Positions 19,426-55,803 of a stretch of DNA of 64,000 nucleotides are shown piece after piece. Source of the stretch: Capsicum annuum (Eukaryota > Streptophyta > Magnoliopsida > Solanales > Solanaceae); assembly GCF_002878395.1 (NCBI RefSeq), contig NC_061118.1:132608705-132672704 (forward strand), in the 5' to 3' direction. The notes under the pieces were generated by a model. The model searched no databases. It was not told the origin of the DNA and saw nothing but the letters and a program-made list of their open reading frames with translations. The number at the start of each line of letters is the position of its first letter. The stretch's first letter is position 1. A program made the translations under genes and the position numbers.

Positions 19426-20176
19426 ATGTCTTCCAGATGATCTAAAGCTCGTGGAAACTCTTCTGTCTCACTTGAGGACAATGTGGATGGAATATGTCCA
19501 ACCTCTGGTGTACAGGCCCAATCTAAGGTTGATGTTTCTTATTGCCCCTGTAGAGTTCCACCAATCTCCACTTATGCTTCTCCCAAGGGTGATACCCATT
19601 CTCAGTCACCCCAATGAGATATTACCAAGGAGGAATTCCATCAATCTATTAATTTTTTAACCCAGTTGGTGACCTCTCAGTCACATTAATTGGGTCCTGT
19701 CGGTGCTAATGTGATTTCATTTGAGGCTAATAGAGCTGTCCATTTTATGAGGTTAAATCCTCTGATTTTCACTGGCACTAAGGTTGAGGAGGATCCTTAA
19801 GGGTTCATAGATAAGATGGAGATCTTTCAAGTAATGCATGCTACTGATGTAGAATGTGTGGAATCCATTGCTTATCAGTTGAAGGATGTAGCATATCAAT
19901 GATATGAAGAGTGGGAGCAGTTTAGGGGTGATAATACAAAGTCTGCTTTATGGGATGACTTTTCGAGAGATTTTTTAGATCTCTTATTTCTTTAAGAGTT
20001 GAGGGAGGAAAAAACTGAGAAGTTTGTGAATGTAGGGCAAAATGATTGAAGTAATATGCCCTGAAGTTCCATCCGTTGTCACGTTATGCTCCTGAGTAAG
20101 TATCTAGTATGAGGGATAGACTGAGGAAATTTGATTTTGGGTTTTCACATGTTTTGATTTTGGAGAGAAAGTGACA
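19426..20176 (+). pseudogene. gag: B2 gag, first part
   Basis: Starts at the ATG at 19426. One frame can be followed for most of the segment, broken by in-frame stops that look like single transitions. Examples are the Trp of a YQWYEEW-type motif read as TGA near 19900, and glutamine codons read as TAA near 19687 and 19797. Recognisable core text includes HFMRLNPLIFTGTK and AYQLKDVAYQ. Gag is cut at 20176 by B3 and resumes at 38235 (DMDISRLVVY). Confidence 0.85.
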
Positions 20177-22539
20177 TGACCCGAATCGGGGCTTTGTCGT
20201 AATAGGCATTCCAAGTCTAACCAGGACCGGTGACCACTCCCGTTACCCAACCTAACCTCCAAACACGTACCCTAAGTTAGATGAATTCTGAATATAACAA
20301 GATAAAATTTTGTACAATTCCAGACTCTGGATAGGTCCATAACCATGACCAACCCAAGCAATTCCAACCATCCAATACCCAACTAATAACCATACCAAAA
20401 CAAAAATAATAACCAAGTACGAGTCCATAACATAATACGATGGAACAATCATAAATACAGTCAAATGGAATCATCCATAATACCAATACCAATGTCAAGG
20501 TTGACACCATTACCGATACCACGCATAATAACCCATAGTAGTCCTACAAAGTCTCTAACCAAAAGTAAAACAATATTCAATTGGGACATGCCCCAAAGCA
20601 TAGCCAAAACCAATATCTTTGAAATAACCAGAGTATGTAAATAAATTCATGATTTGAAATGGAGCCTTCCAGAATATGGAAGCTCACCACTTCAGTCCAA
20701 CAGCTGATCCCAATACAATCACTAAATAGGAGGAGTATAATGGCCGATTCCTGCATCGCGCCCGAAGATGGGTTAGCGGGTAAAAGCTAGCATATACTTA
20801 GGATATGGATAAAATATTGTCAACATTTAAAACCAAGTAAACCAACCATATGCATTCACAACCATACATACATATATATAACCATGCTGGGAAAGGGAAC
20901 CGGGTTTAGCTTGCCCTTAAAATTATTAAACTGGGTATATGTAGCTAAACCATCCTAGAACTACTGACAGGCTATATGGGTCCAGTGTAATCCCCTGAAC
21001 GGGCCTTAGTACATGTAGCCGCACAAATCGGGGATACCATTGGAGTAGGGGATTCCTGAGTACCCTTCACTCTTCATGATACATATGTACAAGTGTACTT
21101 AGGGGATTCCCGTGTACCCCGTAAGTATCATATATGGTTGCCATGACCAATCCTAATGTACGCAAACATGATTTTCCAGTGTTTGTATTTTGGACTCACA
21201 CCTTCATGGTTAGCTATTATACCCTGCCATTATTTCCCAATTAAAGCCATTACTACACAACCAAACCACCATTCCATTTATTATTAACCAAGGCTATAAG
21301 TAGTGGTATTGTCATACCTACTATAGCTTGCAAGCAATGTCCTTAGCTATATTTTTTAAGAAGAAGGGATTCCTATGTACCCATAGATTACATTATTAAG
21401 TTGACTTGGGGGAATCCTATGTACCCCACATAATGTTTGTTGTTAAGTTTGCTTGGGGGATTCAATTGTGCCCCACAAGGCTTTCAAATAGACCAACCAT
21501 AACTACCAAGAACATATAATTTAACCATTCCAAACCATATAAACCATTTAGGGATCCATTACAAAGTTATACATTGCATAGTTAAAAAAAAGTCCAACAA
21601 TTTAACCAAAAACATTCTTATAGGCATTTTATCAAACATGTTGGGGGCATAGTGTTTCCAAAGGCAAAACCAAGTATCAATTAACCATTACCATGCAATC
21701 AAATGTTCAAACCACCATAATAATATGAAAACTATAACTAAAAGACATAGGAAAACCATACCCAACCATTGTAACCAAAACCCCCAATATGTATTTGAAA
21801 GCCCAAAACCATACAACATTTATGCTATGAAAGCAATTCATAAAACATGCCATTAGTTGGAACTAACATTGAGGGAGGAGTAACATGCCTTAAATTATGA
21901 AAATGATGGAGAGAAATCACCCTTTTAAGTCCCAAATTGACCAGCTTGAAGGAAACTATAGCCTTCCTTAACCCAAGAGCCTTGAGGGAATTTGAAAATG
22001 TTTAAGAGAGAATGATTGATTGAAAATAAGTTAATAAAGCCCCAAAAAGATTCTTTATGTCGTGGGTTCATGATAGGTTAAGAGGAAAAATGTCTAGATT
22101 ACCCCCAACTTAAACTTCTTAAACTTCCCACAAGATGGTACGACCACCCCATCCTAATTGTACCCTAGGGTATGAGTGGTTCCCTTATCTCATACCCTAT
22201 GCCTCCCTGTGGTCCCCAACACTGTCCAATATACAACCACCTAATCCAAACCGTACCCAACTATATGATTAGTACCATGAAATCGTACCCTAGGCAGAAT
22301 AGAATCACCTAGACTAAACTTACGGCAACATATGATTGACACCTTACCATTAGTACCCTAACATATAACTTGTATGTTCTAACCATACCTTAGACAGAAA
22401 CCATCCAACCCACACTGGTCACCATATGACCAAGATCAATCAAACCGTACCACATCATATGAGAAGTATCCCAAGTCATATGATGTACAGAAGCAAAAAG
22501 CTGAAAAATTTTCTAAGAGTCAAAACCCAGGGTGTTTCA
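20177..22539 (-). repeat. B3 3' LTR and polypurine tract
   Basis: 2363 bp, from TGACCCGAATCGGGG to GGGTGTTTCA on the plus strand. It aligns with 27576-29731 plus 38064-38234. GTCTCCCCCAC (22540-22550) follows; on the minus strand this is the polypurine tract GTGGGGGAGAC. Confidence 0.9.
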
Positions 22540-22697: not shown

Positions 22698-24100
22698 TCA
22701 AGAACACATACCTTCCGCATGAATATCCAGAGCAGAAAACAAATATGGATACTTGGACTTCATGTCCTCTTTCGCTTCCCAAGAAGATTTATCAACCTTG
22801 TGGTTCTGCCATAAAACCTTAATCGAAGCTACATCCTTGGTCCACAATCAATGAACCTACCGATCCAAGATCTCAATCGAGATCTCTTCATAAGACAAAG
22901 AATCTAAGATACCCAATCCTTCCAAAGGAACAACAGATGAAGGATCACCGATACACTTTCTTAACATAGAGACATGGAATAACGGATGAATGGAGATCAA
23001 ACTAGAAGGCAACTCCAATTCATATGCAATATTACCAACCCTCCTCATAACAACATAAGGACCAACATACTGGGGACTGAGCTTCCATTTTTTTGCAAAA
23101 TACATTACTCCCTTCATGAGAGACATCTTTAGGAACACCCTATCCCCAACCTTAAACTCCAAGTCCCTATTCCTTACATTTACATAGGACTTTTGGCGAC
23201 TTTGGGCAGCCTTAAGCCTATCCAGAATCACCCTTACCTTCTCTATCCACCTTTTTTTANNNNNNNNNNNNNNNNNNNNNNNNNNNNNNNCCACCATACA
23301 ATGCCTCAAAAGAGGCCATCCCAATGCTAGAATGATAGCTATTATTGTAAGAAAACTCTACAAAAGGCAGATGCTCAACCCGATTACCACCATAATCAAT
23401 AACACATGCAAGAAGCATATCTTCCAATGTCAGAATAGTCCTTTCTGCTTGCCCATCCATCTGCGGGTGAAAAGCAATACTCAGACTAACCTTAGTACAC
23501 AATTCTTTTCGAAATGACCATCAAAAGTGAGATAAAAAACTGTGTACAATTATCAGAGATAATCAAAATAGGTACCCTATACAACTTTACAATCTCATGA
23601 AGATACAACCTCATATAATCCTCTGTCAAAAAGTTAGTCCTCACTGTCAAGAAGTGAGCCAACTTTGTCATCCTATCCATAATGACCCAAACTGAATCAA
23701 AATAGTTCTGACACCGAGAAACACTGGTAACAAAATCCATATTTATAACTTTCCATTTGCATTCAGGCTATTCAATTTTCTGATACAAGCCTCCAGGCCT
23801 CATGTGCTAAACTTTAACTTATTAACATACCAAATAGTTGGCCACAAAATAAGCCACATCCTTCTTCATACTATTCGTCCAATATATCTCTTTGATGTCA
23901 TGATATATTTTTATAGAACCAGGATGAACAAAATAGCGCAATTCATATGCCTCGGCCAATACCATTTCTCGCAAACCATCAATGTCAGGAGCACATAACC
24001 TCCCTTGGTACCGCAAGGTACTATCACCACTGATTTCAAATACCATTACCTTTTTCCCACCTACATCACCCTTAATTTTTATCAAGATGGGGTCTAACAT
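22698..24100 (-). pseudogene. int: B3 integrase and chromodomain, degraded, with assembly gap
   Basis: 24100-23822 is the zinc-binding N-terminal part and its lead-in (LRYQGRLCAPDIDGLRE). 23740-23492 is the catalytic core (DRMTKLAHFLTVRTNF). 23502-23291 is core and linker (FSYNNSYHSSIGMASFEALYG), entering the run of N. 23259-22857 is the C-terminal region (LSPQYVGPYVVMRRVGN, HPLFHVSMLRK). 22856-22698 carries a chromodomain (VLWQNHKVDKSSWEAKEDM) in a frame with stops. Colinear with A1 integrase. Confidence 0.85.
23260..23290. other. Assembly gap (31 N)
   Basis: Run of 31 undetermined bases within B3 integrase. Comparison with A1 suggests that more than 31 bases are missing (see findings). Confidence 0.99.
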
Positions 24101-27361: not shown

Positions 27362-27575
27362 GATCTGAAAGGTGAACAAATAGGAATTATAGAAGATTCC
27401 AGGACTTAGATTCCAAGCTTAAAAATAGAACACAAAGAAGTGAAATATTTCTAAATGCCTTGCAACCTCTCTCTTATGAGTCTGGTGTGCTACACCCTCA
27501 AAAAAGGTTCTACTCGACACAACTTTGTAGACTCCCAATTGACCATGAACCTAAAGCTCTGATTCTAACTTTTCA
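27362..27575 (-). other. B3 leader and primer-binding site
   Basis: The minus strand near 27554-27570 reads GTTAGAATCAGAGCTT, a decayed initiator-Met primer site next to the LTR edge at 27576. Near 27480-27500 GGTGTAGCACACC is the B3 form of the shared leader palindrome. Confidence 0.65.
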
Positions 27576-29731
27576 TGACCCAAATCGGGGCCTTGTCGTA
27601 ACGGGTATCCCAAGTCAAATCAGGACCAGGGACCACCCCTATTACCCAACCCAAACTCCAAACTCATACCCTGAGTTGGATGAATTTCAAATATATAAAA
27701 AGATAGAATTTTGTACATATCCAAACTCTGGAATAAGTCCATAACCGTGACCAACCCAAGCAAGTTCTACCATCCAATACTCAACCAATAACCATACCAA
27801 AACCAAAATAATAACCAAGTATGAGTCCATAGTATAATAGGATGGAACAATCATAAACACGTCAAATGGTATTATCCATAATACTAATAGCAGTGCCAAG
27901 GCTGACACCACTACCAACAACTCCCATACCAACCCGTAGTAGTCCCACAAAGCCTTTAAACAAAGGTAAAACAATATCTGATAAGCCAATGTTTATGAAA
28001 TAATTAGAGTATGTAAAGACATTCATGATATGAAATGAAGCCTTTTAAAATATGAAAGCTCACCACTTTAATTCAACAATTGATCCCAAATCCGATCACT
28101 AAGTAGGAGGAGTAGAATAGTCGATTCCTGCATCACATGAGGATAAAGTGACCAAAGATGGGTTAGCGAGTGAATGCTAGCATACACTCAAGATAAGGAT
28201 AAAATAATCCCAACCTTTAGAACCAAGTAAACCAACTATATGCATACACAACCATACATACATATATGTAACCATGCTGGAAAAGGGAATCGGGTTTAAG
28301 ATGCCTCTAAAATCATTAACTTTAGTATGTATAGCTTAATCATCCTAGAACCATCCATGGAATGGGTCCAGTGTAACCCCTTGAATGGGCCTTGATGTGT
28401 GTAGCATACGAACCGGAGATACCATAGGAGTAGGGGATTCCTGAGTTCCTTTTTCTCTTTATGAGATATATGTACAAGTGTACTTAGGGGATTATTGTGT
28501 ACCCCATAAGTATAATATATGGTCGCAATGACCAATCCTCATGTCGGCAAATATGAGTTTCTAGTGTCCATCCATTGGACTCACACCTTTATAGTTAGCT
28601 ATCATACCCCGCCATTATTGCCCAATTAAAACCATTACCATACAACCAAACCAACATTCTGTTTATTATTAACCAAGGCTTTAAGTAGTGGTATCATCGT
28701 ACCGAAAATAGCTTGCAAGCAATGTCCATAGCCTTTCTCTTTAAGAAGAAGAGATTCCCATGTACCCATAGATTACATTATTAAGTTGACTTGGAGGAAT
28801 CCCATGCACCCCGCAAGATGTATTTTTATTAAGTTTTCTTGGGGAAGTCTTTCAACTAGACCAACTATAACTACCAAGACCTTATCATTTAACCATTCCA
28901 AATAATTTAAAACATTTAAGGTTCCATTACCAAGCTATACCATGCATAGTTCAATGAAAGTCCAACAATTTAACCAAAAAAATTCTCATAGGCATTTTAT
29001 CAAACAAGTTGGGGCATAGTGTTTTCAAAGCTAAAACCAAGTACCAATTAACCATTCCCATATAACCAAATATTCAAACCACCATAATAATATAAAAACC
29101 ATAAGTAAAAGACATGGGAAAACCATACCCAACCATTGTAACCAAAACCCCTAATATGTATTTGAAAACCCAAAACCATACGACATTTATGCCATGAAAA
29201 CAATTCATAAAACGTGCCTTTAGTTACAACTATCAATGAGGTAGGAGTAACATGCCTTAGATTATGAAGATGACAAAGACAAATTAAACCTGTAAGTCCC
29301 AAATTAACTGCCTTAAAAGGAAACCCTAGCCTTTCTTAACCCAAGAGGCTTGAGAGAATTTGAGAATGTTTGATTGATTTCAAATAGGTAAATGAAGACT
29401 CAAAAGGGTTTTTTATGTCGTGGGGTCATAATAGGTTAAGAGGGGAAATGTCCAGATTACCCCCAACTTAAACTGCTTAAAATTCTCAAAGGATTGTATG
29501 ACCACCCCACCTCAATCATACCCTAGAGTACGAGTGGTACCCTTATCTCGTACCCCAGGACTCTCCTTAGACCCCAACACTATCCAATATACAACCACCA
29601 AAGTAAAATTTTACCCAACCATATGATTAGTACCATGAATTCATACCCTAGGAAAAATAGAATCACCTAGACTAAACTTAGGGCAACCTATGATTGACAT
29701 CTTACCATTAGTACCCTAACATATGACCTGT
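27576..29731 (-). repeat. B3 5' LTR, part 1
   Basis: Aligns with the B3 3' LTR from TGACCCAAATCGGGG. It is interrupted at 29731 by array C. The last five bases, CCTGT, are the target duplication partner of CTTGT at 38064; the uninterrupted LTR has CTTGT at the same place. Confidence 0.9.
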
Positions 29732-31147
29732 TGATAACACTCAACTTACACATCAATTTAGTGCAAGACGGTCGTCGTCAATAAATTTACCCAACTTTTG
29801 AGTCGGGGTTGAATCCACAGGGAATAATGTGAGTGACGATTAAACTAGTTTGAAACTAAAGCTACAAGTTAAATTCAAACAAATGATACGAAAATATAAA
29901 ATGGGGTTTTTTGATGATCAGTAAATAATTGTTGGTCACTTTAGTTTCAGTGTTTGTAATCAAGAGTTTATGGAAAATTAGAATTATATTCACTATGGGT
30001 TTTGGTACTTGATAGATGCTAATTGTGATTCAAGATACTCATAATAGGTAGGAACAACAGATTGTCTTTATCAAATTTATGCCTAAATGTCTCTCGACTT
30101 ACTTAAGCATTTAATTACCTAATCCTCTCAGAGTTAGGGAATTTATATTCATTGACCAGGCTTCACCTCAGGTTAATTAACCTTGTTGCAACGTCAATTA
30201 TTAAACGGAAGGTTGGTAGCTTCCAAGTCCCTATCAATAATTAACTTCCTACTATAGTTGATTTCTTATCTCAATCAAATCAAAGCAGGTGCTATCTATC
30301 GTTTGCAACCAATAGACAATAATTAAAACCTCAAGGATTTCTATTACCTTTAGAATCTTGAACAATTAGCAACACACCACGATCTAACCCATAGATCCCA
30401 TAATCTGGGTTAAAGGGATTTACCCACTCATAATGTTATAATCTAAATAACTAGATGTATTCATAATTTGAAAGATGAACTTATCATAAGATGAATAGTA
30501 ACTAGTGATTCTCAGATTAGATCACAATAGAAATCCTAAAATATTGATGAAAATCTCTTCAAAGTTAATTGTTTTTCAAGCCAAGAAACTAAAGAGAAAA
30601 GTAACATATACGTGTGTCGCAAAATAGGTTCCCCCTTTAGAAAACCCCAAACTATGCTTTAAATAGTTTAACCTAATTATGGAAATAAAATCACCCAGTT
30701 CAGCAATTTCTTGGATTAGATGATGACATTCGTGACACCTTATAAGGAGTTTGACGACTTATCAAAAATTTTGTAATCTCCTTCTTTAGTTTTAGGACTT
30801 TTTGCTTAAGGTTGATGATGAAACCTGACGACTTATCAACTCTTTGATGACTTATCAGGAAATATCATCACAAATTTCAGATGAGGTCTATTCTCTGTCT
30901 GAGGCTGACGGTATCTCTGATAACTTATTACATGGCGGACGAGTTATCAAGAATTTCGTCAGACACACTTTCCTTCTATTTTCTTCAGATTTCAACTCTT
31001 TTGTTTCCATCTTTTTTGGTTCTCTTACATCTTAGCTTCTACTGCAAAATCAAAGATAAAATAATCAAAAATGATAAAATTTGCTTAAAACATTGCAATT
31101 ATTCTCAGTTAAAAGCCTCAAATGTGTTAGCATCTGTTCACACATCA
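29732..31147 (-). repeat. Array C LTR a (subtype X)
   Basis: 1416 bp. Most like LTR c, sharing for example CAGTGTTTGTAATCAAGAGT near the plus-strand start. TGATGACTTATC- and GACGACTTATC-type words cluster at 30720-30965. Confidence 0.88.
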
Positions 31148-31176
31148 ACTTCTTCTTCCGGAAACGGTGCCATTTC
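31148..31176 (-). other. 29-nt internal region between LTRs a and b
   Basis: Minus strand: GAAATGGCACCGTTTCC followed by GGAAGAAGAAGT. TGGCACCGTTTCCGG is a near match to the tRNA-Asp primer site TGGCGCCGTTGCCGG, and the purine run touches the next LTR. Nothing else is present. Confidence 0.75.
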
Positions 31177-32616
31177 TGATAACGCTCAACTTACACGTCA
31201 ATTTAGTGCAAGGAGGTCATCGTCAATAAATTTACCCAAATTTAGAGTCGAGGTCGAATCCACAGGGAATAATATGAGTGGCGATTAAACTAGTTTAAAA
31301 CTAAAGCTACAAGTTAAATTCAAGCAAATGATACGAAAAGCTAAAATGGGGGTTTTCAACGATCAAACAAATGTTAAAGTTTAATTTGCTTCAGAGCTCA
31401 AATCTTAAACTACAATATTTCAAATCGATGATATAGAGAAACTAGAGTTGTGATCACTATGATTAGTAATCCTCCATTGAATAATAGTTGTAGTATTGGA
31501 TTCTCGTGACTTATGGAAAATACCAAATTATCAGTTTCGACAGTCCATCTAAGTGTTTCTCGACCTACCTAGATGTTGAACTCCTTAATTCTTTCGAACT
31601 TAGAAAAGAATTCTATTCATACTGATTTTATCTCGAGTTGATCAACCTTGTTACAGCATTAATCATTAGATGAGAACTTAACCTTCCCAAATCCTCGTTG
31701 ATAATTCACTTCTTACTAGGGTTGATTTCTTATCTCAAGCAAATCAACAGTAAGCAAGGCCTATTATTTGCAACCAATAGAAAATAATTAATACAAAAAA
31801 AATTATCAAGATGTTCCCACAATCACTCAAACCCTAATCAAATATTAAATCCATGGAGGAATAATCATAGATCCCACAACCCTAGTTATGGGTTTTAGTT
31901 CCACATGAGAAAGAAAGAGACAACAACAATTATATTCATCATTCAAAGTAATTAAACTTACAAAAGATGAAGTCTGAAGTTGATTCTCTTCCAAGTTCAA
32001 GACCAAAATCTCAAAACCCAATCAAAGAGTTGAATATTCAATTCTAAGTTAAGAGCCCCAAAAAGAAAAGTAAACTCCCTTGGAATAAGTTCCAAATGTC
32101 GAGTACCCTGAATAAACCCTAAAAGCTATTATTTATACCCATGACTTAAGAAAAATTTGAAATAAAATTTTTAGAATTTTCCTTTTAGGTGACGACATGT
32201 GTGATAACTTATCACAAATCTGATAAGTTATTAGGCATGTCGTCAGAACTTCTGCTCCAATATGACGACTTCTGTGATAACTTATCAGATTTGTGATAAG
32301 TTATCACACATGTCGTCAGACATGCTTCCAACTTCTTTTATTCTGCCTCAGTGTTATGACATGTGTGATGGCTTATCACAAATTTGATAAGTTATCACAC
32401 AAGTCGTCAGAATTGATACCCAGTGTGAATTCTTCAAAACTCAATTATTTTCACCAAAAATCATCCTCCTTGACACAACTTTCATATATTTCCATGCATC
32501 TTGAATTTGCTACAAAATCACATGAAATATCATCAAAAACAATGACAGTTACTTAAGAACTTACAATTATTTCGAGTTAAAAGCCTTTAATATGCTAACA
32601 GAAAGCTAGCACATGA
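31177..32616 (-). repeat. Array C LTR b (subtype Y)
   Basis: 1440 bp, most like LTR d. U3 holds three consecutive imperfect palindromes (32191-32244, 32262-32316, 32357-32409) built from GTGATAACTTATCAC and GACGACATG. A TATA-like TATAAATAA lies near 32131-32141 on the minus strand. Confidence 0.88.
32131..32141 (-). promoter_or_regulatory. TATA-like box in LTR b
   Basis: The minus strand reads GGTATAAATAA about 475 bp from the LTR 5' edge and just downstream of the palindrome cluster, the expected place for the U3 core promoter. LTR d has GGAATAAATAA at the equivalent site, a weaker version. Confidence 0.45.
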
Positions 32617-32693
32617 ATACCCTCAACTTAAAATAATTGCTTGTCCACAAGAAACTACATAACACTATACTACGATGCTTAAGACACCATTTT
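32617..32693 (-). other. 77-nt internal region between LTRs b and c
   Basis: The left end (ATACCCTCAACTTAAAATAA) is identical to the start of the long internal region at 34122. The right end, on the minus strand, starts AAAATGGTGTC, the edge of a primer-binding site. It is therefore an internal region deleted down to its two ends. Confidence 0.75.
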
Positions 32694-34121
32694 TCATAAC
32701 GCTCAACTTACACATCAATTTAGTGCAAGGCGGTCATCATCAATATATTTATCCAACTTTGGTGTCGGGGTCAAATCCATAGGGAACAATGTGAGTGGCG
32801 ATTAAACTAGTTTGGAACTAAAGCTATAAGTTAAATTCAAACAAATGATACGAAAAGATAAAATGGGGTTTTTTTAATGATCCACAAATAATAGATAGTC
32901 AATTTAGTTACAGTGTTTGTAATCAAGAGTTTATGAAAAACCAGAATTATGTTTGCTATGGGTTTTGGTACTTGACAGATGCTAATTGTGATTCAAGATT
33001 CTCAAGATAGGTAGGAATAACAAATTGTCTTTATCGAAGTTATGCCTAAATGTATCTCGACCTACTTAAGTATTTAATTACCTAATCCTTTCGGACTTAG
33101 GAAATTTATATTCACTGACCAGACTTAACCTCAGGTTAATTAACCTTGTTACAGCGTCAATTATTAAATGGAAGGTTGGTAGCTTCCAAGTCCCTGTCAA
33201 TAATTAACTTCCTACTATAGTTGATTTCTTATCTCAAGCAAATCAAAGAAGGTGTTATTTATCATTTGCAACCAATAGATAATAATTAAAACCTCAGAAT
33301 TATCAAGGTTTCTATTATCTTTAGAATCTTGACCACTTAGTAACTTACCACGATCTAACCCATAGATCCCATAGTTCGGGTTAAAGAGATTTAGTCACTC
33401 ATAATGTAATAATCGAAACAACTAGATGTATTCATAATTTGAAAGATGAAATTACCACAAGATGAATAGTAACTAGTGATTCTCAGATTAGATTACAATA
33501 GAAATTCCCAAATATTGATGAAAATCTCTTCAAAGTTAATTGATTTTCAAGCCAAGAAACTAGAGAGAAAAGTAACAATATACGTGTGTCCCAAAATAAT
33601 TTCCCCCCCATAGAAAACCCTAAACTATGCTTTAAATAGTTCACCCTAATTATGGAAACAAAATCACTGAGTTCAACAATTTCTCAGATTAGATGACGAC
33701 ATTCGTGACACCTTATCAGGAGTCTGTCGACTTATCAAAAATGTCGTCAGCTCTTTCTTCAGTTTTAGCACTTCCTGCTTAAGGTTGATCATGAAATCTG
33801 ATGACTTATCAACTCTTTGATGACTTATTAAGAAATGTCTTCACAAATTTCAGTTGAGGTCCATTCTCTGTCTAAGGCTGATGGTATCTCTGATAACTTA
33901 TCACATGGCTGACGACTTATCAGGAATGTAATCAGAGATACTTCTCTTCTATTTGGGCCAGATTTCAACTCTTTTGTTTCCATCCTTTTTGGTTCTCTTG
34001 CATCTTGGCTTCTACTACAAAATTAAAGAGAAAAAAAATCAAAAATGACAAAAGTTGCTTAAGACCTTGCAATTATTCTTTGTTAAAAGCCTCAAATGTG
34101 TTAGCATTTGCTTACACTTCA
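32694..34121 (-). repeat. Array C LTR c (subtype X)
   Basis: 1428 bp. The plus-strand start is TCATAACGCTC rather than TGATAACGCTC (one substitution), and the end is CACTTCA. Closely similar to LTR a throughout. Confidence 0.88.
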
Positions 34122-35770
34122 ATACCCTCAACTTAAAATAATTGTTTGTCCTCAAGAAACTCAAACACAACCAAGAGGATACAAAGTACATTTGCCAGTC
34201 AATCATCCATATTATCTCAAAACATCTTCACCATCTCCAAGGTCAGTCACTTCAAGAGAAACTGTGTATATTATTGAAGAATAATAATGCAACATAAAAG
34301 AATCAAGATACGACATTAATTTATCTATAAAAACCATTCATAGACCAGCATTACACTATCCGAACAAGTTTACAACTAGCAACATATCTGGTGTGTCCTA
34401 ACAATAAAGAAATCCCCTTTTTCTCATATCAGCAATCATATATGTAACCATAGGGACAATCAAAGGACACTCACTCTCAGAATGAAGTTCCAATCAATGT
34501 ATGCCAAGTACCATAGGCTTGCCATTATTTTCATTGCCAAGATTTTCAGATAGGTCAGCTAGGATCACTATCGGTTTTCTCTTTGGCTTTTAATTTTGGC
34601 TAGGGGCTGGTTTGATACTCAATGATATTTAAAGTGACTAAGCCTTCTTGACACTACACTAGCTTCTGGGGTCTCACTTATTAAATTTTTTTATTCTTCT
34701 CTTTTCTTGATCACATATATTCAGGATGGGTGCGGTCTTTTCTATAATCTTTTTTTTTTCTTTCACAACATTTCTTTTATTGTTCTTTTCCACCACACCC
34801 AGCTTTTTATTCTTTTCTTTTATTCTACCTTTTTTCATACTAATTTTACATCAAGCACCCCTATGATAGCCACCCTTAACTTAGACCATTTGCGTAAGTT
34901 AAGATGCATAGTGTCCAAGGAGGACCAGGGTCAAAAGAGGTTCATTATGTTATAAATTGGACGGTGATAGGTTTCATAAAAATAAATAGGCTATGTAGGC
35001 TCAAAATAAGGATCAAGGGATATTGTGCATATAGGGAAGGTTATTTAGGCTAAAAATGGGCTAATATCAACAATGACCTATTATTCTTTCCTAACCGCTA
35101 TCTTACAACCAAGGCAAGATCAACTGGGAAAGTTCTGGATTTAACACACAATGAGAACAAGGTAGTATCTCATACACAGATGGCACAAAGGTATATCACA
35201 AGCTACTACCCATTCGCTTCATGCAATTGTTTAGCAGTGGTTATCATGTCACTAGTGCTAATGCCATAACAAGATGCACAGTGGTCACACATAAATGCAT
35301 ATCACATAGTTATAAAATAGACCATTGGAAAGGTATTCAAAAATCAACAAAAATATGTTAATTGCCTAAGGTACTTGTTTTTCCCCAGTTAATCACAACA
35401 CATCACAAAACAAACACAATACACCTAAACAAACCAGCTCTACTATGAACAAGACTCCGGGGAAAAGAGGCACGACAACAAAAACCCCAAGAGGACATCA
35501 ACACCCACAAGTAGCTCCACCCTTAACTTAAAATCATGCAATGTCCCTAAGGCATCAAACCAAAACAAGAGAGTTAGAAACATACCTGTGGCACCATGGG
35601 TGTAAAGATCTGATGTCAATCACATAATATGAATACAAACAACAAAATACCTTGGGTTGCCTTCTAAGCAGCGCCTGATTTAATGTCGCAGCATGACCCA
35701 ACTCAATTTTTTCCTCCTCTTTAAGGATATAAATTTCACCCCTAACTTAGAGTCTATCTTCTTTCCTCAA
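34122..35770 (-). other. Array C long internal region, 3' part
   Basis: No reading frame I can recognise. The region holds a T-rich tract near 34740-34850 and the polypurine-type end at 34122-34140. RT, RNase H and integrase motifs are absent in all frames inspected. Confidence 0.6.
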
Positions 35771-36199
35771 TCATAGAGGGGGCGATACTAAAATTAAGAA
35801 GTCCAGTAATGGATTAAGCGTGGTAAACCACTCGGCCGGATAGTGAGGTATGTTTTTATGTTGCTTATGAAGTGTAAAATAAAGAATATAGGGTTCTTGT
35901 TCCTCATCTTCACACTCTTCCACTATTTTAGATAATTCCACAAACAAGATACCATCTAAACATAATGTAGAAAAATGCTTCGAGTGAGGCCCAACTAATT
36001 CTACTTCAAAATTTACACTATCTACTACACGCTCACTTTTATTCACCTTCTCAATGTCAGTCTCAAGATCAAGATGGCAATCGAGTGGTTGCGATTCTTG
36101 AGTTTTCTCCTCAAATTGGCTAATGTCCTTCTCATTTTCTTCTTTGTTTAGTCGCTATAAATATGGTGGAAGCGGTAACTCCTTTAGCTCTGCCCACAT
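35771..36199 (-). pseudogene. Unrecognised acidic ORF in array C
   Basis: Read from the minus-strand ATG at 36199 to the stop at 35771, about 143 codons with one in-frame TAG near 36156. The second part is open (SVNFEVELVGPHSKHFSTLC, FVELSKIVEECEDEEQEPYI). It is rich in Glu and Asp in the first half and more hydrophobic at the end. It lies where gag should start, but I see no capsid or zinc-knuckle motif. It could be a remnant of a Tat/Athila-type 5' ORF or a captured host fragment. I do not assign a function. Confidence 0.4.
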
Positions 36200-36228
36200 C
36201 TATTCTTGATTCTCTAAAATTCATTTTA

Positions 36229-36465
36229 TTAATTTTTGGCTTGAATTGTGATAGCATACATATGTTCAGTATGATCACTTTGACCACAAGCCAAACACCA
36301 AGTTACAGTAAGTAGGACAGTATTCGCATCATATTGTGAAGGTCCAGTCCATGCACTTCCAGGTAAATTTGGACAGCAAGCCTCAAAATATGATCCCTCA
36401 CAATAATAACAAGAACCATCACAAGAATCATCATCACTCAAAAAACCATCTCTCCAGGCTGACAT
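36229..36465 (-). CDS. Cys-rich small ORF, 78 aa, array C
   Basis: The first ORF after the primer-binding site (about 140 bp downstream). An acidic N-terminus (FLSDDDSCDGSCYYCEGSYF) is followed by paired cysteines (CYYC, ACCPNLPG, CLACGQSDH). The CX2C pairs suggest a possible metal-binding fold; no known retroviral zinc knuckle spacing is present. It is uninterrupted here. The downstream acidic ORF starts 30 bp later. Function unknown. Confidence 0.4.
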   Translation of the reverse strand: MSAWRDGFLSDDDSCDGSCYYCEGSYFEACCPNLPGSAWTGPSQYDANTVLLTVTWCLACGQSDHTEHMYAITIQAKN

Positions 36466-36582
36466 CTCAAGAAAGGTGTGATAAAAATAAAAGAAAATAA
36501 AAAATAAACTAAAACAATATTTACAAGTTTGAATTCAACCAAGTAGGTTAAAATTTCAAACCAACTCAATACGCCAAATTGC

Positions 36583-36604
36583 TCCCCGACAACAGCACCA
36601 TTTT
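36583..36604 (-). other. Array C primer-binding site (tRNA-Asp type)
   Basis: Minus strand after the LTR d end: AAAATGGTGCTGTTGTCGGG, continuing GAGC. This resembles the TGGCGCCGTTGCCGGGGA site used by many Athila/Tat-related plant elements, with two or three substitutions. Confidence 0.65.
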
Positions 36605-38063
36605 TGATAACGCTCAACCTATACATCAATTTAGTGTAAGGCAATTGTCGTTAATATATTTATCAAACTTTGGAGTCGGGGTCGAATCCACAGGGAACAC
36701 CCCGACTCTACAGGGAACAATGTGAGTGGCGATTAAACTAGTTTCAAACTAAATCTACATGTTAAATTCAAACAAATAATACGAAAAGCTAAAATGGTGG
36801 TTTTCAATGATCAAACTAATGTTAAAGTTTAATTTGCTTCATAGCTCAAATCTTAAACTAAAATATTTCAAATCGATGATATAGAGAAAGTAGAGTTATG
36901 ATCAATATGATTAGTAATCCTCCATTGAATAACAATTGTAGTATTGGATTCTCGGGACTTTTGGAAAACACCAAATTATCAGTTTTGACAGTCCATCTAC
37001 GTGTTTCTCAACCTACCTAGATGTTGAACTCCCTAATTCTCTCGAACTTAGGAAAGCATTCTATTCATACTGATTTTATCTTGAGTTGATCAATCTTGTT
37101 ACAACATTAATCATTAGATGAGAACTTAACCTTTCCAAATCCTCATTGATAATTCACTTCTTACTAGGGTTGATTGCTTATCTCAAGCAAATCAACGGTA
37201 AACAAGACCTATTGTTTGCAACCAACAAAAAATAATTAATACAAAAGAATTATCAAGATGTTCCCACAATCACTCGAATCCTAACCAAATATTAAATCCA
37301 TGGAGGAATAATCATAGATCCCACAACCCTAGTTGTGGGTTTTAGTTCCACATGAGAAAGAAAGAGATAGCAACAATTATTTCGTCATTTAAAGTAATTA
37401 AACTTACAAAAGATGGAGTTTGAAGTTGATTCTTTTCCAAGTTCAAGAGCAAAATCTCAAAACTCAATCAAAGAGTTGAATATTCAATTCTAAGTTAAGA
37501 GCCCCAAAAATAAAAACAAACTCCACTGGAATAAGTTCCAAAATGTCTAGTACCCTGAATGAACCCTAAAACCTGTTATTTATTCCCATAACTTAAGAAA
37601 ATTTTAAAATAAAAATTTCAGAATTTTTCTTTTAGGTGACGACATGTGTGATAACTTATCACAAATCTGATAAGTTATAAGGTATGTTGTCAGAACTTCT
37701 GCTACAATATGATGACTTCTGTGATAACTTATCAGATTGGTGACAAATTATCACACATGTCGTCAGACATGCTTCTAATTTCTTGTGTTCTGCCTCAGTG
37801 TGATGACATGTGTGATGGCTTATCATAAATCTGACAAGTTATCACACAAGTCGTCAGAATTGCTTCCAAGTGTGAATTCTTCAAAACTTAATTATTTTCA
37901 CCAAAAATCATCCTCCTTGACACAACTTTCATATATTTCCATCCATCTTGACTTTCCTACAAAATCACATGAAATATTATAAAAAACAATGATAGTTACT
38001 TAAGAACTTATAATTATTCTGAGTTAAAAGCCTTAAATATGCTAAAGAAAAGCTAGCACATCA
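36605..38063 (-). repeat. Array C LTR d (subtype Y)
   Basis: 1459 bp. Similar to LTR b, including the three U3 palindromes (37637-37857). It has a roughly 20-bp local duplication near 36690-36710 (ACCCCGACTC / CAGGGAACA repeated). It ends CTAGCACATCA, then the CTTGT target copy. Confidence 0.88.
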
Positions 38064-38234
38064 CTTGTATGTTCCTACCATACCTTATTCATAAACTATG
38101 TAACCCATACTTCTAACCATACAACTATGACCAACCAAATCGTACCACATCATATGAGAAGTACCCCAAGTCGTCTGATGTCTAGAAGCCAAAAACTAAA
38201 AAATTTTCTAAGGGCCAAAACTCAGGGTGTTTTA
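38064..38234 (-). repeat. B3 5' LTR, part 2
   Basis: Starts with CTTGTATGTTC, exactly continuing the LTR broken at 29731, and runs to GGGTGTTTTA, the equivalent of the B3 LTR end at 22539 with a final C-to-T change. Confidence 0.88.
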
Positions 38235-41340: not shown

Positions 41341-44300
41341 TGTTTTGCGGAAATTTTGAATTTTGAGAGTCGCTACTTAATTTATTTGAAAAGTAATTAA
41401 GAAAACCTTTATATGATACTTTAAACGATCCAAAATAGAAAAATCATTTAAATTTGAAGATTCTGAGTAAGCGGTTCCTATTAACGTTTTAGGAAGGTTT
41501 AAGGCACCTAAAACATCCGCTAACTTGCGGTTATCCAGGCTGTTTGAAAATATCTTTTGACTAACTTCAAGAAGATTGATTGTTGAAAAGTGATTGATTT
41601 TAGGAAAAAGACTTGTGTAAAATAGATTTGGACAACTTAGTAGGACTTTTAACTAAGTCTAAACAAACTAATAACAAAACATGTAAAAGGGGAAGGGTAG
41701 AAAATAAAAGATTTAGCCCATTGGCCCCAAATAAATAGACCCTGTCCTAATCTAATTGGGTTTTTGGCCTACTTGCACCTGCCCTAATCTAAATGTTTGG
41801 CCTTGACCCGTAACCTGTCCTAAAGCTATTTTTCATGCCCGTTGGACCAAAATATGTTCCACCTGTATTAAATTTATAATTTTGGCTTTGAGGCCCAAAT
41901 GAATAAGCAATGAAATAAATAAATAAATAAATAAATAAGGGCAACAATACAAATGAATAAATGAAGAAACGAGACTTTCAAGTCTCTTAGCTGTTTCAAG
42001 GGAACTTTAACCCATTCTTCTTCTTTCGAATATTTGTAGCCATGCACTATGTAATCGGTTTTGGATTCTCTTTCGGTCTTGACTCGAGAAAGTGGACCAT
42101 CTTCGCCCATTATGAAATGCATGGAGAAAAAGTCCATTTGGACTCCAAGGTGGGTTCATGCAAGGAAAAAAATGATGGAATTAATTTATGTTCTAAAGAG
42201 AGCGAATAAAACATTAAAGTAACCTAAGAAAAACATGCATCAAGCTCATGCGTAAGAATCAAACAAAAATAGCATAATGTAGCCATATGACTGAAAAGGA
42301 TAATCAATGGGATTTCCAATAATATTTTCTCTATGATTAATTGAGCACTATATTCTAAGACGTATAAACAGCTTTTAACAAAGGGAATTATGTCATCATG
42401 ATATTTCAATAAGGTTAACACGTTAATTATGCTAAACTTTAACACAGAAACCAAACAACTGAATTCATTGGTGCAAGATAACTTTTTGAATAACTTACTA
42501 CCAAGAAGCCGTATGAATGCAGAATTATAGATATTTTTACAACAAGCTTGGACAGGTTAAACTCAAAACCCAAGCTTTCAAGAAAACAAGATTTTCTTGC
42601 CAACTATGATGCCAATTAATCGGAAATTAACAATTTTTTAACTAATGAAAAGTTAAAAGATGAAACCTACGAACATGTTCCGAACAAATACAATCCAAGA
42701 CATCAAGCTCATACCAAATTCCAAAAAAGGAAAAAAAGAACTAAAGAAAAACCCAAAAGCAATACATCCAGTACTTCATAATAAACAAAGACCAATAGGT
42801 TCACCTCAGAAAAAAAAAAGACAAACTTATATATGTTTAACATTCAAAAAAAAACCAATAGCACACAGAAAAGAAACTAAATAGCTTAATATATTAAAAT
42901 CGGTTAGACGGAACAATATTAAAAAAACATATTTCTTGGGCAATCAGGTGGTATTTTTGAGCAATTTCTATTTAAATAAATTAGTATTAACCTTTGGTAA
43001 TGAGAAGAATAAAAACTCCAGCCTATTAAAGTAACCTACTGTAATCCCAGATATGCGAGACTAAGCATCACAAGAAAGCAAATGATCGCATATATTCAGA
43101 CACAAGCGACATACACAATTAATTTCTAGCCAATAGGGAAAACACGAATTAGAGGATTCCAATTTATATGAAAGAAACTTTTGGTCATTTATTAAAGGCA
43201 ACCATTTTATTGGATTAAAAAAACTTAGGAAAATCTTATTCAAAAAAAATAAAGCTTGAGCTCAAGTAAATACCGGTTATGAAATAAACAAAGAAATCTA
43301 GTCAAATAATTAAAGGCGCTCAAAACATCTGCAGTAACTTCTAGGGACAAAAATAAGCGATGAAGACACTTTCTTTATTCTTCAGTCTTTATTTAAAGGA
43401 AGAACAAATCAAATACTTCATCCCTTCTTTGACAAGTTATAATTAGTATCATACGTCAAGAGAATCCTTGGGGAATCATTAGTTAGAAAAGAAATGTTTA
43501 AATCACAACATTATGCAATGATCATATTCAAAACATCAAACAGAATTCAACCTACAGACCACTCAAAATAATTATAATGACTAGCCATATTCTCACGATA
43601 TCGTACGCCAAACGGTGAACTCAAACCACAGAAAATAATACTCCAACTTGGAATGACATATCGATTCCCAAAATAAGAGGAAAATAAATTGGAAACATGA
43701 ACCACAACCTGTAAAAATATTACTAGTTGATTCTTTGGATATTTTGAACAAGCATTTGAGCTAAAAAAATACTAATAGAAGAGAAAAGACAAGAACTTGC
43801 CAGAGGTGCTAACCAAAGAAACCATCTTTAGTGTTCAATTAAAAAACTGGAAGCTAAGACAGTGAACTAGACAAGAAAACTACAGGATCTAGATGACATA
43901 TATGTACCCATTAATTCATACGGTAAAGTTACTACTACTCAATATCGATAATCGCTAAACCAATTTATTACAACCAATTGACACCATTAATATGCGATAA
44001 TGAACTCGTTAAAATATTGAACTGAAGATTATTGCGCAACCATTATTTCCAATAAAACAACACATAACAAACTACTTCTACGAGTTTCATAGCTATCTAC
44101 AGCTATTCCCAGCAAGCAGGCAACAACATAATCATTATAAAGAAGGAGATGAAGCAGATACAAAGAAAACGATAACAGAAGTTAAAAATGAAATGGGTGT
44201 TACCTCCTTTGAGCCAGCAAAATGGGATCACGAACTTCATTGGAATCAGTAACTATTAAAAAATGTTGCCGTCAACTCGAAATCTTTAATTTTGCCAACG

Positions 44301-47309: not shown

Positions 47310-48278
47310 AATGATATATCCTCGATGCCAGCGTATGCTATCCTACGTGTCAACAGATATTAGATGTTGATGATATCCTCAATGCCAGTGTATGATATCT
47401 CATGTGTCAACAGATATTAGATATTGACGATATCCTCGATGCCAGTGTATGCTATCTCGCGTGTCATCAGATATTAGATACTGATGATATCCTCGATGTC
47501 AGCATATGCTATCTCGTGTGTCAATAGATATTAGATGCTGATGATGTCCTCGACACCAGCGTATTCTATCTCAAATGTCAACAGATCTTAAATGTTGATG
47601 ATATCCTCGATGCCAGCGTATAATATCTCATACGTCATAATATATTTAATGAAGATGATACCCTCGATGCCAGTGTATGATATCTCGCGTGTCATCAGAT
47701 ATTTAATATGGATGATACCCTTAATACCAGCATATGATATCTCATGTGTCATCAAATATTTAATGCGGATAATACCCTCAACGCCAGTATATGATATCTA
47801 GCACATCATTAGATATTTAATACGGATGATACCCTCGATGCCAGCGTATGATATCTTGCGCATCATTAGATATTTAATGCAGATAATATCCTCGATGCCA
47901 GCATATGATATCTCACGCGTCATTAGATATTTAATATAGATGATATCCTCGATGCCAGTGTATGATATCTCGTGCGTCATCAGATATTTAATATGGATAA
48001 TATCCTTAACGCCAGCTTATGATATCTCATATGTCATCAGATATTTAATATAGATGATACCTTTTATGACAGTGTATGATATCTCACGCGTCATCAAATA
48101 TTTAATATAGATGATATCCTTGATGCCAGCATATGATATCTCGTGCGTCATCAGTTATTTAATACAGATGATACCCTCGATGCAGCGTATGATATCTCGC
48201 ACGTCATCAAATATTTAATGCAGATGATATCCTCGACGCCAGCATATGATGTCTCGCACTTCATCAGATATTTAATGT
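47310..48278. repeat. D tandem repeat, 57 bp x 17
   Basis: 969 bp equals 17 x 57. Unit landmarks on the plus strand are GATGATATCCTCGATGCCAG, TATGATATCTCGCG and TCATCAGATATTTAAT. The leftmost five or six units carry AGATATTAGAT in place of AGATATTTAAT, a second subtype. One unit near 48180 has a one-base deletion, offset elsewhere. Confidence 0.92.
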
Positions 48279-52988: not shown

Positions 52989-55803
52989 TGTTTTGTGGAA
53001 ATTTTGACTTTTGAGAGTCGCCACTTAATTTATTTGAAAAAGAATTAAGAAAACCTTTATACGATACTTTAAACGATCCAAAATAGAAAAATTATTTAAA
53101 TTTGAAGACCCTGAGTAAGCGGTTCCTATTAACATTTTAGGAAGGTTTAAGGCACCTAAAACATCCGTTAACTTACGGTTATTCGTACTGTTTGAAAATA
53201 TCTTTTGACTATTTTCAAAAAGATTGATTGTTGAAAAGTGATTGATTTTAAGAAAAAGATTTGTGTAAAATAGATTTGGACAACTTAGTATGGATTTTAA
53301 CTAAAGTCTAAACTAACTAATAACAAAGCATGTAAAAGGGGAGGGGGAGAAAATAAAAGACTTAGGTCATTGGGCCCAAATCAATAGACCCTATCCTAAT
53401 CTAATTGGGCTTTTGGATCACTTGCACCTGTCCTAATCTAAATGTTGGGCCTTGGCCTGTAACCTATCCTAAAGCTATTTTTTCAGGCCCGTTGATCCAA
53501 AACCTGCTCCACCTGTATTAAATTTATAACTTTGGCTTCGAAGCCCAAATGAATAAGCGATGAAATAAATTAATTAATAAATAAATAAGGAGAACAATAC
53601 AAATGAATAAATGAAGAAACGAAACTTTCAAGTCTCTTAGCTGCTTCAAGGAAAATTTAACCCATTCTTTTTCTTTCGACTTTTTGTGGCCATGCACTAT
53701 GTAATCAGTTTTGAATTCTCTTTCGGGCTTGACTTGAGAAAGTGGGCCATGTTCGCCTATTATGAAATACATGAAGAAAAAGTCAATTTGGACTCCAAGG
53801 TGGGTTCATGCAAAGAAAAAGATGAAGGGATCAATATATGTTCTAAAGAGAGAGAATAAAACATTAAAGTAGCCTAAGAAAAACATGCAACAAGCTCATG
53901 TGTAAGAATCAAACAAAAATAACATAATGTAGCCATATGATTGAAAAGAATAATCAACGCGATTTCCAACAACATTTTCTCTATGATTAATTGAGCACTA
54001 TATTCTAAGGCATATAAACAACTTTTAACAAAGGGAATTATGTCATCATGATATTTCGATAAGGTTAACAAGTTAATTATGCTAAACTTTAACACAGAAA
54101 CCAAACAAATGAATTCATTGATTCACAAATTTTTTTTATCAACATACCATTAAGAAGCTATATGAGTGTAGAATTAGAGATACTTTTACTACAAACTTGG
54201 ACAGGTTAAACTCAAAACCTAAGCTTTCAAGAAAATAAGATTGTCTTGCCAACTATGATGCCTATTAATCGAAAATTAATAATTTTTAACTAATGAAAAG
54301 TTAAGACATAAAACCTATGAACATATTCCTAACAAATACAATCCAAGACGTCAAGATCATACCAAATTCCAAAAGAGGAAAAAAAGAACTAAAGAAAAAC
54401 CCAACAGAGATCCATGCAGTACTTCATAATAAACAAAGACCAATAGGTTCACCTCAGAAAATAAAACAACAGACTTATATATGTCAAACATTCAAGAAAA
54501 ACAATAGCACATAGAAAAAAATTAGCTAGTTTAATATATCGAAATCGGTCAGACGCAACAATATTAAAACAAATATATTTCTTGGACAATCAAGTGATCT
54601 TTTAGAGCAACTTCTATTCAAATAAATTAGTATTAACCTTTGGTAATGAGAAGAATAAAAACTCCAGCCTGTTAAAGTAACCTACTGGAATCCAAGATAT
54701 GCGAGACTAAGCATCACAAGAAATCAAATGATCGCATATATTTAGACAAAAGCGATATACATAATTAATTTCCAGCCAATAGGGAAAACATGAATTAGAT
54801 GATTCTAATTTATAAGAAAGAAACTTTTGGTTATTTATTAAAGACAACCATTTTATTGGATTAAATGAACTTAGGGAAAGCTTATTCCAAAAAAAAAAAC
54901 AAAGCTTGAACTCAAGTAAATACCGGTTATGAAACAAACAAAGAAATCTAGTCAAATAACTAAAGGCGCTCAAAACATCTGCAGTAACTTCTAGGGACAA
55001 AAATAGGCGATTGAGACACTTCCTTTTATTCTTCAGTCTTTATTTAAAGGAAGAACAAAGCAAATACATCATCCCCTCTTTGACAAGTTATAATTAGTAT
55101 CATACGTCAAGAGAATCCTCAAGGAATGTTCAAATCACAACATTATGCAATGATCATATTCAAAACACCAAACAAAATTCAACTTATAGACCACTCAAAA
55201 TAAGTATAATGACCAGCCATATTCTCACTATATCATACGCCAAACGGTGAACTCAAACCACAGAAAATAATACTCCAGCTTGGAATGACATATCAATAAC
55301 CAAAATAAGAGGGAAATAAATTGGAAACATTAACCACAACCTGTGAAGAAAAGCATTTGAGCTAAAAACCTACTAACAGAAGAGAAAAGACAAGAACTTG
55401 CCAGCGGTGCTAAACCAAAGAAACCATCTTTAGTGTTCAATCGACAAAACTGGAGCTAAGACAGTGAACTAGACAAGAAAACTGTAGGATCTCGATGACA
55501 TATATGTACCCATTAATTCATACAGTAAAGTTACTACTACTCAATACCAATAATTGCTGAACCAGTTTATTACAATAAATCGACACCATTAACACGCGAT
55601 AATGAACTTGTTCAAAAATTGAACTGGAGATTATAATGCAACCATCGTTTGCAAGAAAATAATATATAACAAACTACTCCTATGGCTTTCATAGCCATCT
55701 GCAGCTACTCCCAGCAAGCAGGCAACAACATAAACATTATAAAGAAGGAGATGAATCAGAAACAAAGAAAAGGATAGCAGAAGTTAAAAATGAAAAAGGG
55801 TGT
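52989..55803 (-). repeat. D 5' LTR, outer part deleted
   Basis: 2815 bp aligned with 41341-44205, ending at GGGTGT near 55803, where the left copy continues for another 1.24 kb. U3 of this LTR is therefore missing. Confidence 0.88.

What the first reader, a model, noticed from the sequence alone, without database searches (positions are those of the whole stretch)
29732..38063. Four LTRs in tandem with internal regions of 29, 77 and 2483 bp
Array C has the layout LTR-29-LTR-77-LTR-2483-LTR, with primer-site edges at all three internals and polypurine-type edges at the 77- and 2483-bp ones. The outer boundary shows a near-perfect 5-bp target duplication (CCTGT/CTTGT) in the B3 LTR. Shared-LTR tandems are known products of unequal recombination, but two of three internal regions collapsed almost to their priming sites is unusual. 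It could have grown in place, or a tandem could have integrated as one unit.
Basis: partly seen in the sequence, partly recalled or inferred. Interest (0 to 1): 0.75.

Follow-up and report, generated by a model that had tools for sequence, protein, structure and literature searches.

The report
Interlocked two-type tandem LTR retrotransposon array
Four retrotransposon end-repeats in a row in a plant genome turn out to be two different kinds in alternation (A-B-A-B) at one insertion site, so the array records recombination between two retrotransposon subfamilies, a new twist on a known kind of tandem.

Summary
The layout LTR-29-LTR-77-LTR-2483-LTR is real and exact. The array is one insertion: a sister copy of the host LTR reads straight through the site with one copy of the 5-bp target, and no internal flanks form a duplication. 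L1 and L3 are subfamily A, L2 and L4 subfamily B. They share freely only a ~180-bp U5-side module, which shows no fixed A/B difference in 76 other genomic LTRs. L1/L3 are sisters in a tree (99/94). L2/L4 share one mosaic and a clear best-hit margin, but the tree does not join them. Two LTR pairs are thus probably interlocked, with unlike outer ends. The 2483-bp internal is a complete, common non-coding internal; the 29- and 77-bp ones are remnants of which exact searches found no other case. One mixed compound A-I-B-J-A lies elsewhere and resembles published template-switching complexes. Best reading: a two-subfamily cDNA compound inserted once, extended by exchange in the shared module, and shrunk by deletion. 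A reverse-transcription-only origin, hinted at by L1 lacking a polypurine tract, is not excluded. New variant of a known kind.

The parts
29727..29731 (+). left copy of target duplication, CCTGT
   Evidence: read directly; empty-site alignment
29732..31147 (-). L1, subfamily A LTR, outer 3' end of the array; no polypurine tract next to its U3 end
   Evidence: BLAST 88% to L3 over full length; sister of L3 in tree, 99/94; flanks
31148..31176 (-). 29-bp internal: primer-site region (about 31155-31172, decayed) plus at most a few bases from the other side; no polypurine tract
   Evidence: no other match covers the L1 part of the junction, 40 scored of 773 candidates
31177..32616 (-). L2, subfamily B LTR
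   Evidence: best genomic match is L4, 1999 bits; next 1639 (part of the LTR) and 1634 (full length), 40 scored of 8908 candidates; shared mosaic with L4
32617..32693 (-). 77-bp internal: 66 bp of J-type polypurine side (32617-32682) joined to ~11 bp of primer-site edge (32683-32693); GACAC at the join could belong to either side
   Evidence: L2 end plus J66 matched over 96 bases or more by 39 of 40 other rows, none going past base 107 of 157, 40 candidates scored of 2183
32694..34121 (-). L3, subfamily A LTR (starts TCATAAC where others start TGATAAC)
34122..36604 (-). 2483-bp internal I, complete from polypurine side to primer site (about 36583-36600); no protein domain found in the ORFs tried
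   Evidence: 28 of 39 other scored loci match over at least 2,380 of 2,483 bp at 82-88%, 40 scored of 15159 candidates; ORFs
35517..35537 (-). second polypurine-like motif in the middle of I
   Evidence: found 1.34-1.45 kb from the terminal one in 27 other held loci; 59 of 2463 windows are at least as conserved
36605..38063 (-). L4, subfamily B LTR, outer 5' end of the array
   Evidence: 90% to L2 full length
38064..38068 (+). right copy of target duplication, CTTGT
27574..29731 (.). left part of the host LTR into which the array inserted; it continues from 38064
   Evidence: 81.5% to 20175-22373; empty site

Best explanation
Shown: the array is a single insertion with LTRs of two types in the order A-B-A-B, and the types share freely only a ~180-bp U5-side module. 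Well or moderately supported: L1/L3 and L2/L4 are pairs. Inferred: RNAs of an A-I and a B-J element were co-packaged and reverse transcriptase jumped between them in R, giving a compound cDNA B-J-A-I-B that integrated once with a 5-bp duplication. Later, one further exchange in the shared module (unequal crossing-over or gene conversion between chromatids or homologues) placed a second A-I unit in the outermost B LTR. That gives A-I-B-J-A-I-B with unlike ends and an unchanged target duplication. Illegitimate deletions then reduced two of the three internals to 29 and 77 bp. I put the single insertion with two types at about 0.9; the figure below is for the whole staged history.
For: Empty site and single TSD. 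Two LTR types. L1/L3 sisters, 99/94, with 4 private shared variants that none of 649 non-pair comparisons reaches. L2/L4: best-hit margin and common mosaic. No near-fixed A/B difference in the first ~180 bp and near-fixed ones from ~181 on, in 43 A and 33 B genomic LTRs (both LTRs of an element often counted). A compound of the kind assumed exists: C4:137640400-137650265 reads A-I-B-J-A, outer A LTRs 90.5% identical over 1112 bases with 4 private shared variants, middle LTR B. The three held LTRs with L2's end type whose polypurine side was read (L004, L026, L040) all have J. By my reading, 5 of 39 loci fetched through internal I show extra LTR units (L022, L026, L035, L044, L047), and in 4 of those 5 a unit is partly deleted, so deletion in tandems is common.
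Against: No locus read here shows the intermediate B-J-A-I-B. J is not a strict mark of B: it also follows A-type LTRs at L034, L036 and L039. Short internals between intact LTRs were not found elsewhere: 0 exact matches for gaps of 1-61 and 61-121 bp, against 6381 matches of the polypurine-type half, some of them the central motif, and 3148 of the LTR-start half; two independent deletions are therefore not cheap. L2/L4 pairing is weaker: they are together in only 2% of 200 bootstrap trees of their middle part, in an open fork that also fails to join the true pairs L027 and L041; they share 2 private variants, as do many unrelated pairs among the 47 of 406 with two or more.
Confidence: 0.42

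Rival explanations
1. Reverse transcription alone. The minus strand ran U5R-U3(A), jumped near the polypurine tract to a primer site, went on U5R-U3(B)-66 bp of J, jumped to a primer site again, then U5R-U3(A)-I. L1 was left without a polypurine tract, so plus-strand synthesis started at the next one, beside L2. The second strand transfer then copied L2, not L1, into the far end, giving L4. One event explains A-B-A-B, unlike ends, L4 as twin of L2, and both short internals.
For: Of the three LTRs that act as a 3' LTR here, L2 and L3 have a polypurine tract and L1 does not; L4's likely twin is L2, the first LTR from that end that has one. The + strand order is the order of minus-strand synthesis. 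Both short internals keep the primer-site edge, where reverse transcription starts. Recombination at R in the first strand transfer is documented for a plant family (PMC5668417, passages).
Against: Needs several forced jumps, use of an A RNA 3' end twice or two A RNAs, and a second strand transfer from an internal primer site. No second copy found. Deletion can also explain the missing tract, since the natural sequence at the end of A LTRs holds a direct repeat TCAAC.
Confidence: 0.3
2. Extrachromosomal A-I DNA (a one-LTR circle or linear cDNA) recombined by homology with a resident B-J-B element, once in each B LTR at the shared U5-side module, giving A-I-B-J-A-I-B; two internals were deleted later.
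For: Explains interlocking, unlike ends, unchanged TSD, J beside L2 and I beside L3. Integrase-independent integration into resident elements is cited for yeast in PMC11899658 (passage).
Against: Needs two insertions into one element plus two deletions; nothing here shows circles in this family.
Confidence: 0.15
3. Assembly chimera or collapse.
For: The assembly has 80840 contigs and the window has a 31-base N run at 23260-23290, outside the array. No reads were available.
Against: No N in the array; like LTRs differ by 8-11% and unlike ones by more, so mis-joining of identical repeats is unlikely; the flanks rebuild one empty site with one target copy.
Confidence: 0.07
4. Nested or adjacent independent insertions of A and B elements.
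For: Two subfamilies are present.
Against: Nesting gives A-B-B-A, not A-B-A-B; none of the internal flanks (ACTTC, ATTTC, ATACC, ATTTT, ATACC, ATTTT) forms a duplication with the other end of a possible element, apart from the like primer and polypurine edges.
Confidence: 0.04

Closest known systems
Template-switching complex LTR retrotransposons of cereals (Sabot and Schulman 2007, PMC1950507; abstract and sections 4 and 5 read)
   Same: Shared internal LTR, flanking 5-bp duplication, proposed jump in R between two co-packaged RNAs. The C4 compound A-I-B-J-A here fits its layout, though its far target flank was not read.
   Different: There the outer LTRs are alike and two cores complete; here there are four LTRs, outer ends are of two subfamilies, and two internals are remnants.
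Tandem LTR retrotransposons of rice and other plants (Morales-Diaz et al. 2025, PMC11899658; abstract, passages and section 10 read)
   Same: Alternating LTRs and internals, one target duplication, single insertion inferred; the authors leave open complex insertion against later recombination.
   Different: The two rice loci described in the passages I read have similar units (LTRs 85-89% or 99%); here two U3 types alternate, so the pairing of LTRs can be read.
Cassandra, Wukong and other tandemly arrayed TRIMs (PMC7215508, PMC4528315, PMC4717578; passages read)
   Same: Three or more LTRs in tandem, often with target duplications; Wukong's internal is 72 bp with primer and polypurine sites.
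   Different: TRIM LTRs are short (Wukong 230 bp) and the small internal is the family's normal state; here LTRs are 1.4 kb and the normal internal is 2.5 kb.
Recombinant Onsen insertions in Arabidopsis (Sanchez et al. 2017, PMC5668417; passages read)
   Same: Recombination between family members, mostly consistent with the first template switch at R.
   Different: No tandem compound is described in the passages I read; the products there carry hybrid LTRs.

Membership tests
Template-switching complex (PMC1950507) | flanking target duplication of one insertion | tested here: met
   4 of 5 bases, and empty site in sister host LTR
Template-switching complex (PMC1950507) | outermost LTRs alike | tested here: not met
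   L1 against L4 77.2% with 381 gap columns; types A and B
Template-switching complex (PMC1950507) | internal LTR shared between two complete cores | tested here: not met
   one complete core (I), two remnants of 29 and 77 bp
Template-switching complex (PMC1950507) | U3 and U5 of an LTR from different templates | tested here: inconclusive
   U5-side module has no near-fixed A/B difference
Recombinant complex of two adjacent insertions (criteria in PMC1950507) | no flanking target duplication | tested here: not met
   duplication present
Tandem LTR retrotransposon (PMC11899658) | alternating LTRs and internals, starting and ending with an LTR | tested here: met
Tandem LTR retrotransposon (PMC11899658) | retrotransposon protein domains, as in their 28 selected cases | tested here: not met
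   no Pfam hit above cut-off in 4 ORFs tried of 8 listed
LARD-like non-autonomous LTR retrotransposon | LTRs, primer and polypurine sites, long non-coding conserved internal, many copies | tested here: met
   internal about 2.5 kb; non-coding judged on 4 of 8 listed ORFs
Tat/Athila type by primer site (recalled) | primer site matching tRNA-Asp 3' end and a Tat/Athila polymerase | tested here: inconclusive
   primer flanks resemble TCCCCGGCAACGGCGCCA (the tRNA match is recalled); no polymerase seen in this internal to place
TRIM | short LTRs and short internal as the normal state | tested here: not met
   LTR 1.4 kb, usual internal about 2.5 kb

The most novel reading that the evidence does not exclude
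The array is one aberrant reverse transcript of two co-packaged RNAs, in which loss of the terminal polypurine tract moved plus-strand initiation to the next internal one, so that the far LTR was copied from the second LTR, not the last. It would be a genomic fossil of second-strand transfer from an internal polypurine tract and would explain unlike outer LTRs in a single insertion.
Probability: 0.25. Interest if true: 0.65.

Novelty: new variant of a known kind. Interest (0 to 1): 0.42.

Why it matters
Whether tandem LTR retrotransposons form before integration or by later recombination is stated as open in PMC11899658 (passage). Here the two U3 types act as natural labels on the LTRs, so the pairing of ends can be read. 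The family is large (15159 first-look candidates for its internal), and at least one other mixed compound exists (C4). Counting such cases could settle the question: like outer and unlike middle LTRs point to reverse transcription; unlike outer LTRs point to later exchange or abnormal priming.

Tried and rejected
Four equal LTRs in a simple unequal-crossing-over tandem: rejected, two types. Nested insertion: rejected by order and flanks. A replicating family with 29- or 77-bp internals: neither junction was matched again among the scored candidates, and exact patterns for short internals gave 0. These patterns demand exact ends and would not find the array itself, so they show rarity, not absence.

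A false lead: three pairs of polypurine-type matches 1406-1419 bp apart among the first 100 of 6381 looked like collapsed internals. One search showed the same spacing inside ordinary internals, where a second, central motif lies, so I dropped that reading. Three other pairs in the same 100, 4228-4304 bp apart, remain candidates for full shared-LTR tandems.

A second false lead: I first took the three-LTR tandem at C1:137507492-137517349 as mixed, because its middle LTR matched B less well than the outer two. On re-check one outer LTR (L010) and the middle one (L057) are 89.3% identical, closer than either is to the six other LTRs compared, and share 4 private variants. It is better read as a tandem of one type; the third LTR was not fetched.

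Change of parent along internal I between A-type and B-type elements: the scan gave no clear switch. Whether the bases beyond the primer site in the 29-bp internal come from tRNA or from an internal region: too few bases to tell.

Searches of papers. None of the listings or passages I read describes two LTR subfamilies alternating in one insertion, but only open-licence papers are held and I read parts of them.
Full report
What is there. The window lies in contig C8 of a 3.21-Gb assembly with 80840 contigs. The array runs from 29732 to 38063 and reads, on the + strand, L1 (1416 bp), 29 bp, L2 (1440), 77 bp, L3 (1428), 2483 bp, L4 (1459); the sense of the element is the - strand.

One insertion. 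The array splits the downstream LTR of an older element, whose upstream LTR (20175 to about 22537) is uninterrupted. The joined flanks of the array align to it without a gap at the site and with one copy of the target, AACTTGTATG. The two LTRs of that host are 81.5% identical, so the host is older than the array. The outer duplication CCTGT/CTTGT is 4 of 5. Of 22 other elements with one internal and both flanks read, 12 have 5 of 5, 8 have 4 of 5 and 2 (L014, L032) none (counted). The six internal flanks form no such duplication.

Two kinds of LTR. L1/L3 match over their full length at 88% and L2/L4 at 90% by BLAST, or 89.1% and 91.7% by global alignment; the four unlike pairs are 76.5-78.3% with 296-381 gap columns. 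The 20 elements with at least 4 of 5 target bases have LTR pairs at 88.9-92.0%, so both array pairs are within the range of LTRs that were identical at insertion. Identity alone does not prove pairing, because copies of this family are nearly as close to each other: L1 is 89% to L050. Hence further tests. In a tree of 46 A-type LTR stretches, L1 and L3 are sisters, 99/94, in 100% of 200 bootstrap trees. They share 4 variants private to the two, which none of 649 non-pair A comparisons reaches; the 16 other A pairs gave 0 to 21, so the test often misses true pairs. For B, the tree of 33 rows leaves L2 and L4 in one open fork and joins them in only 2% of 200 bootstrap trees; the true pairs L027 and L041 are not joined either. 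L2 and L4 share 2 private variants, a number that many unrelated pairs reach (47 of 406 pairs have two or more). In favour, L4 is L2's best match in the genome by a wide margin (1999 bits; next 1639, and 1634 for the next full-length match; 40 scored of 8908 candidates). Both also have L008, L009 and kin among their nearest up to about base 900 and L004 and L026 beyond about 1200, and between about 900 and 1250 each is the other's nearest. So the L1/L3 pair is well supported and the L2/L4 pair moderately.

The shared module. In 43 A-type and 33 B-type genomic LTRs (often both LTRs of one element) the first ~180 bases from the U5 end carry no near-fixed A/B difference; four columns there differ in frequency because A is mixed. 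From base 181 on, near-fixed differences follow one another. This is what exchange in R-U5 would leave; that the module is R-U5 is inference.

The internals. The 2483-bp internal is a complete copy of a common internal, I (40 scored of 15159 candidates), flanked elsewhere by A, B and mosaic LTRs. Of 8 ORFs listed across the array I gave 4 to Pfam; none had a hit above cut-off, and one, which starts in L1, had a weak hit below it. The 77-bp internal is 66 bp of a different polypurine-side type, J, joined to ~11 bp of primer-site edge. J follows all three held LTRs with L2's end type whose polypurine side was read (L004, L026, L040), but also A-type LTRs at L034, L036 and L039, so J is not a strict mark of B. 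The 29-bp internal is a primer-site edge with no polypurine tract. The natural sequence to the right of A LTRs starts TCAACACCCTCAACTT; a slip between its two TCAAC copies plus a deletion could give the observed join, so an exact join at the LTR end is not forced.

Elsewhere in the genome. Neither short junction recurs among the candidates scored. Exact patterns for polypurine edge and LTR start 1-61 and 61-121 bp apart give 0, against 6381 and 3148 matches of the two halves (backwards controls 13 and 4); some of the 6381 are the central motif described below. Shared-LTR tandems do recur: by my reading, 5 of 39 loci fetched through the internal (L022, L026, L035, L044, L047) have extra LTR units, and 4 of those 5 are partly deleted. 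The sample is the best matches to one internal, seen through about 2 kb on each side, so it is neither random nor complete. One compound is clearly mixed in type: C4:137640400-137650265 reads A-I-B-J-A. Its outer A LTRs are 90.5% identical over the 1112 bases compared, and share 4 private variants, but the first is 90.8% to another element's LTR (L016), so identity alone is not decisive. Its far target flank was not read. A three-LTR tandem at C1:137507492-137517349 has flanks TTTAG and GTTAG, 4 of 5. I first took it as mixed, but an outer and the middle LTR are 89.3% identical and share 4 private variants, so it is better read as one type.

How it arose. Shown: one insertion, two types, shared module. 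Supported: the pairing. Inferred: a compound B-J-A-I-B made by template switching in R, as proposed for cereal complexes (PMC1950507, sections 4 and 5 read), then one exchange in the shared module that put A-I into the outermost B LTR, then two deletions. The exchange explains the unlike ends, which standard reverse transcription does not give. The main rival puts everything into one aberrant reverse transcription: L1 has no polypurine tract, the next LTR that has one is L2, and L4 at the far end looks like L2's twin, as expected if plus-strand synthesis began there. I hold the staged history slightly more likely because each step is of a known kind, and because partly deleted tandem units are common in my sample.

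Known or new. Tandem LTR retrotransposons with one target duplication are known in rice and other plants (PMC11899658; abstract, passages and section 10), as are tandem TRIMs (PMC7215508, PMC4528315, PMC4717578; passages) and R-region recombination in bursts (PMC5668417; passages). New here, as far as my seven paper searches show, is the interlocked two-subfamily order with unlike outer ends, with two near-empty internals in an element whose LTRs are 1.4 kb.

A motif in the middle. A second polypurine-like motif lies in the middle of I at 35517-35537 and at 1.34-1.45 kb from the terminal one in 27 other held loci. Of 2463 windows of 21 bases, 59 are at least as conserved in 29 copies; against a special role, the terminal tract itself scores only average in the same alignment (0.906, mean 0.905).

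Limits. 

Noticed in passing
35517-35537, and 27 other loci: A second copy of the polypurine-type motif sits in the middle of the internal, 1.34-1.45 kb from the terminal one; 59 of 2463 windows are at least as conserved, while the terminal tract is only averagely conserved there. It may be a central plus-strand start like the central polypurine tracts of lentiviruses and Ty1 (recalled).
   Followed up: partly
LTR bases 1-180 from the U5 end, 76 genomic LTRs: The U5-side module looks interchangeable between LTR subfamilies with a sharp boundary at about base 181, and many LTRs are mosaics of A and B with a further switch near base 930.
   Followed up: partly
32190-32409 and 37637-37869: The two B-type LTRs hold inverted repeats around a GATAACTTATCACA-type unit (inverted matches at 74-83%).
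   Followed up: no
47316-48276: Tandem repeat of a 57-bp unit, 16.9 copies, 82% matches.
   Followed up: no
41341-44200 and 52989-55803: A direct repeat pair 11.6 kb apart, 88.7% identical, probably another LTR pair.
   Followed up: no
2598-4797 and 9963-12143: A direct repeat pair 7.36 kb apart, 92.6% identical, probably an LTR pair.
   Followed up: no
23260-23290: 31-base run of N in the host element, outside the array: an assembly gap or a withheld stretch.
   Followed up: no
L026 with L055 and L056 (C4:137640400-137650265): Mixed three-LTR compound A-I-B-J-A, a candidate for template switching between two subfamilies; far target flank not read.
   Followed up: partly
L034 (C5:90352030-90358521): The two LTRs beside one internal fall into different A subgroups in the tree and are 83.3% identical over the alignable part; may be another mixed or converted pair.
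   Followed up: no
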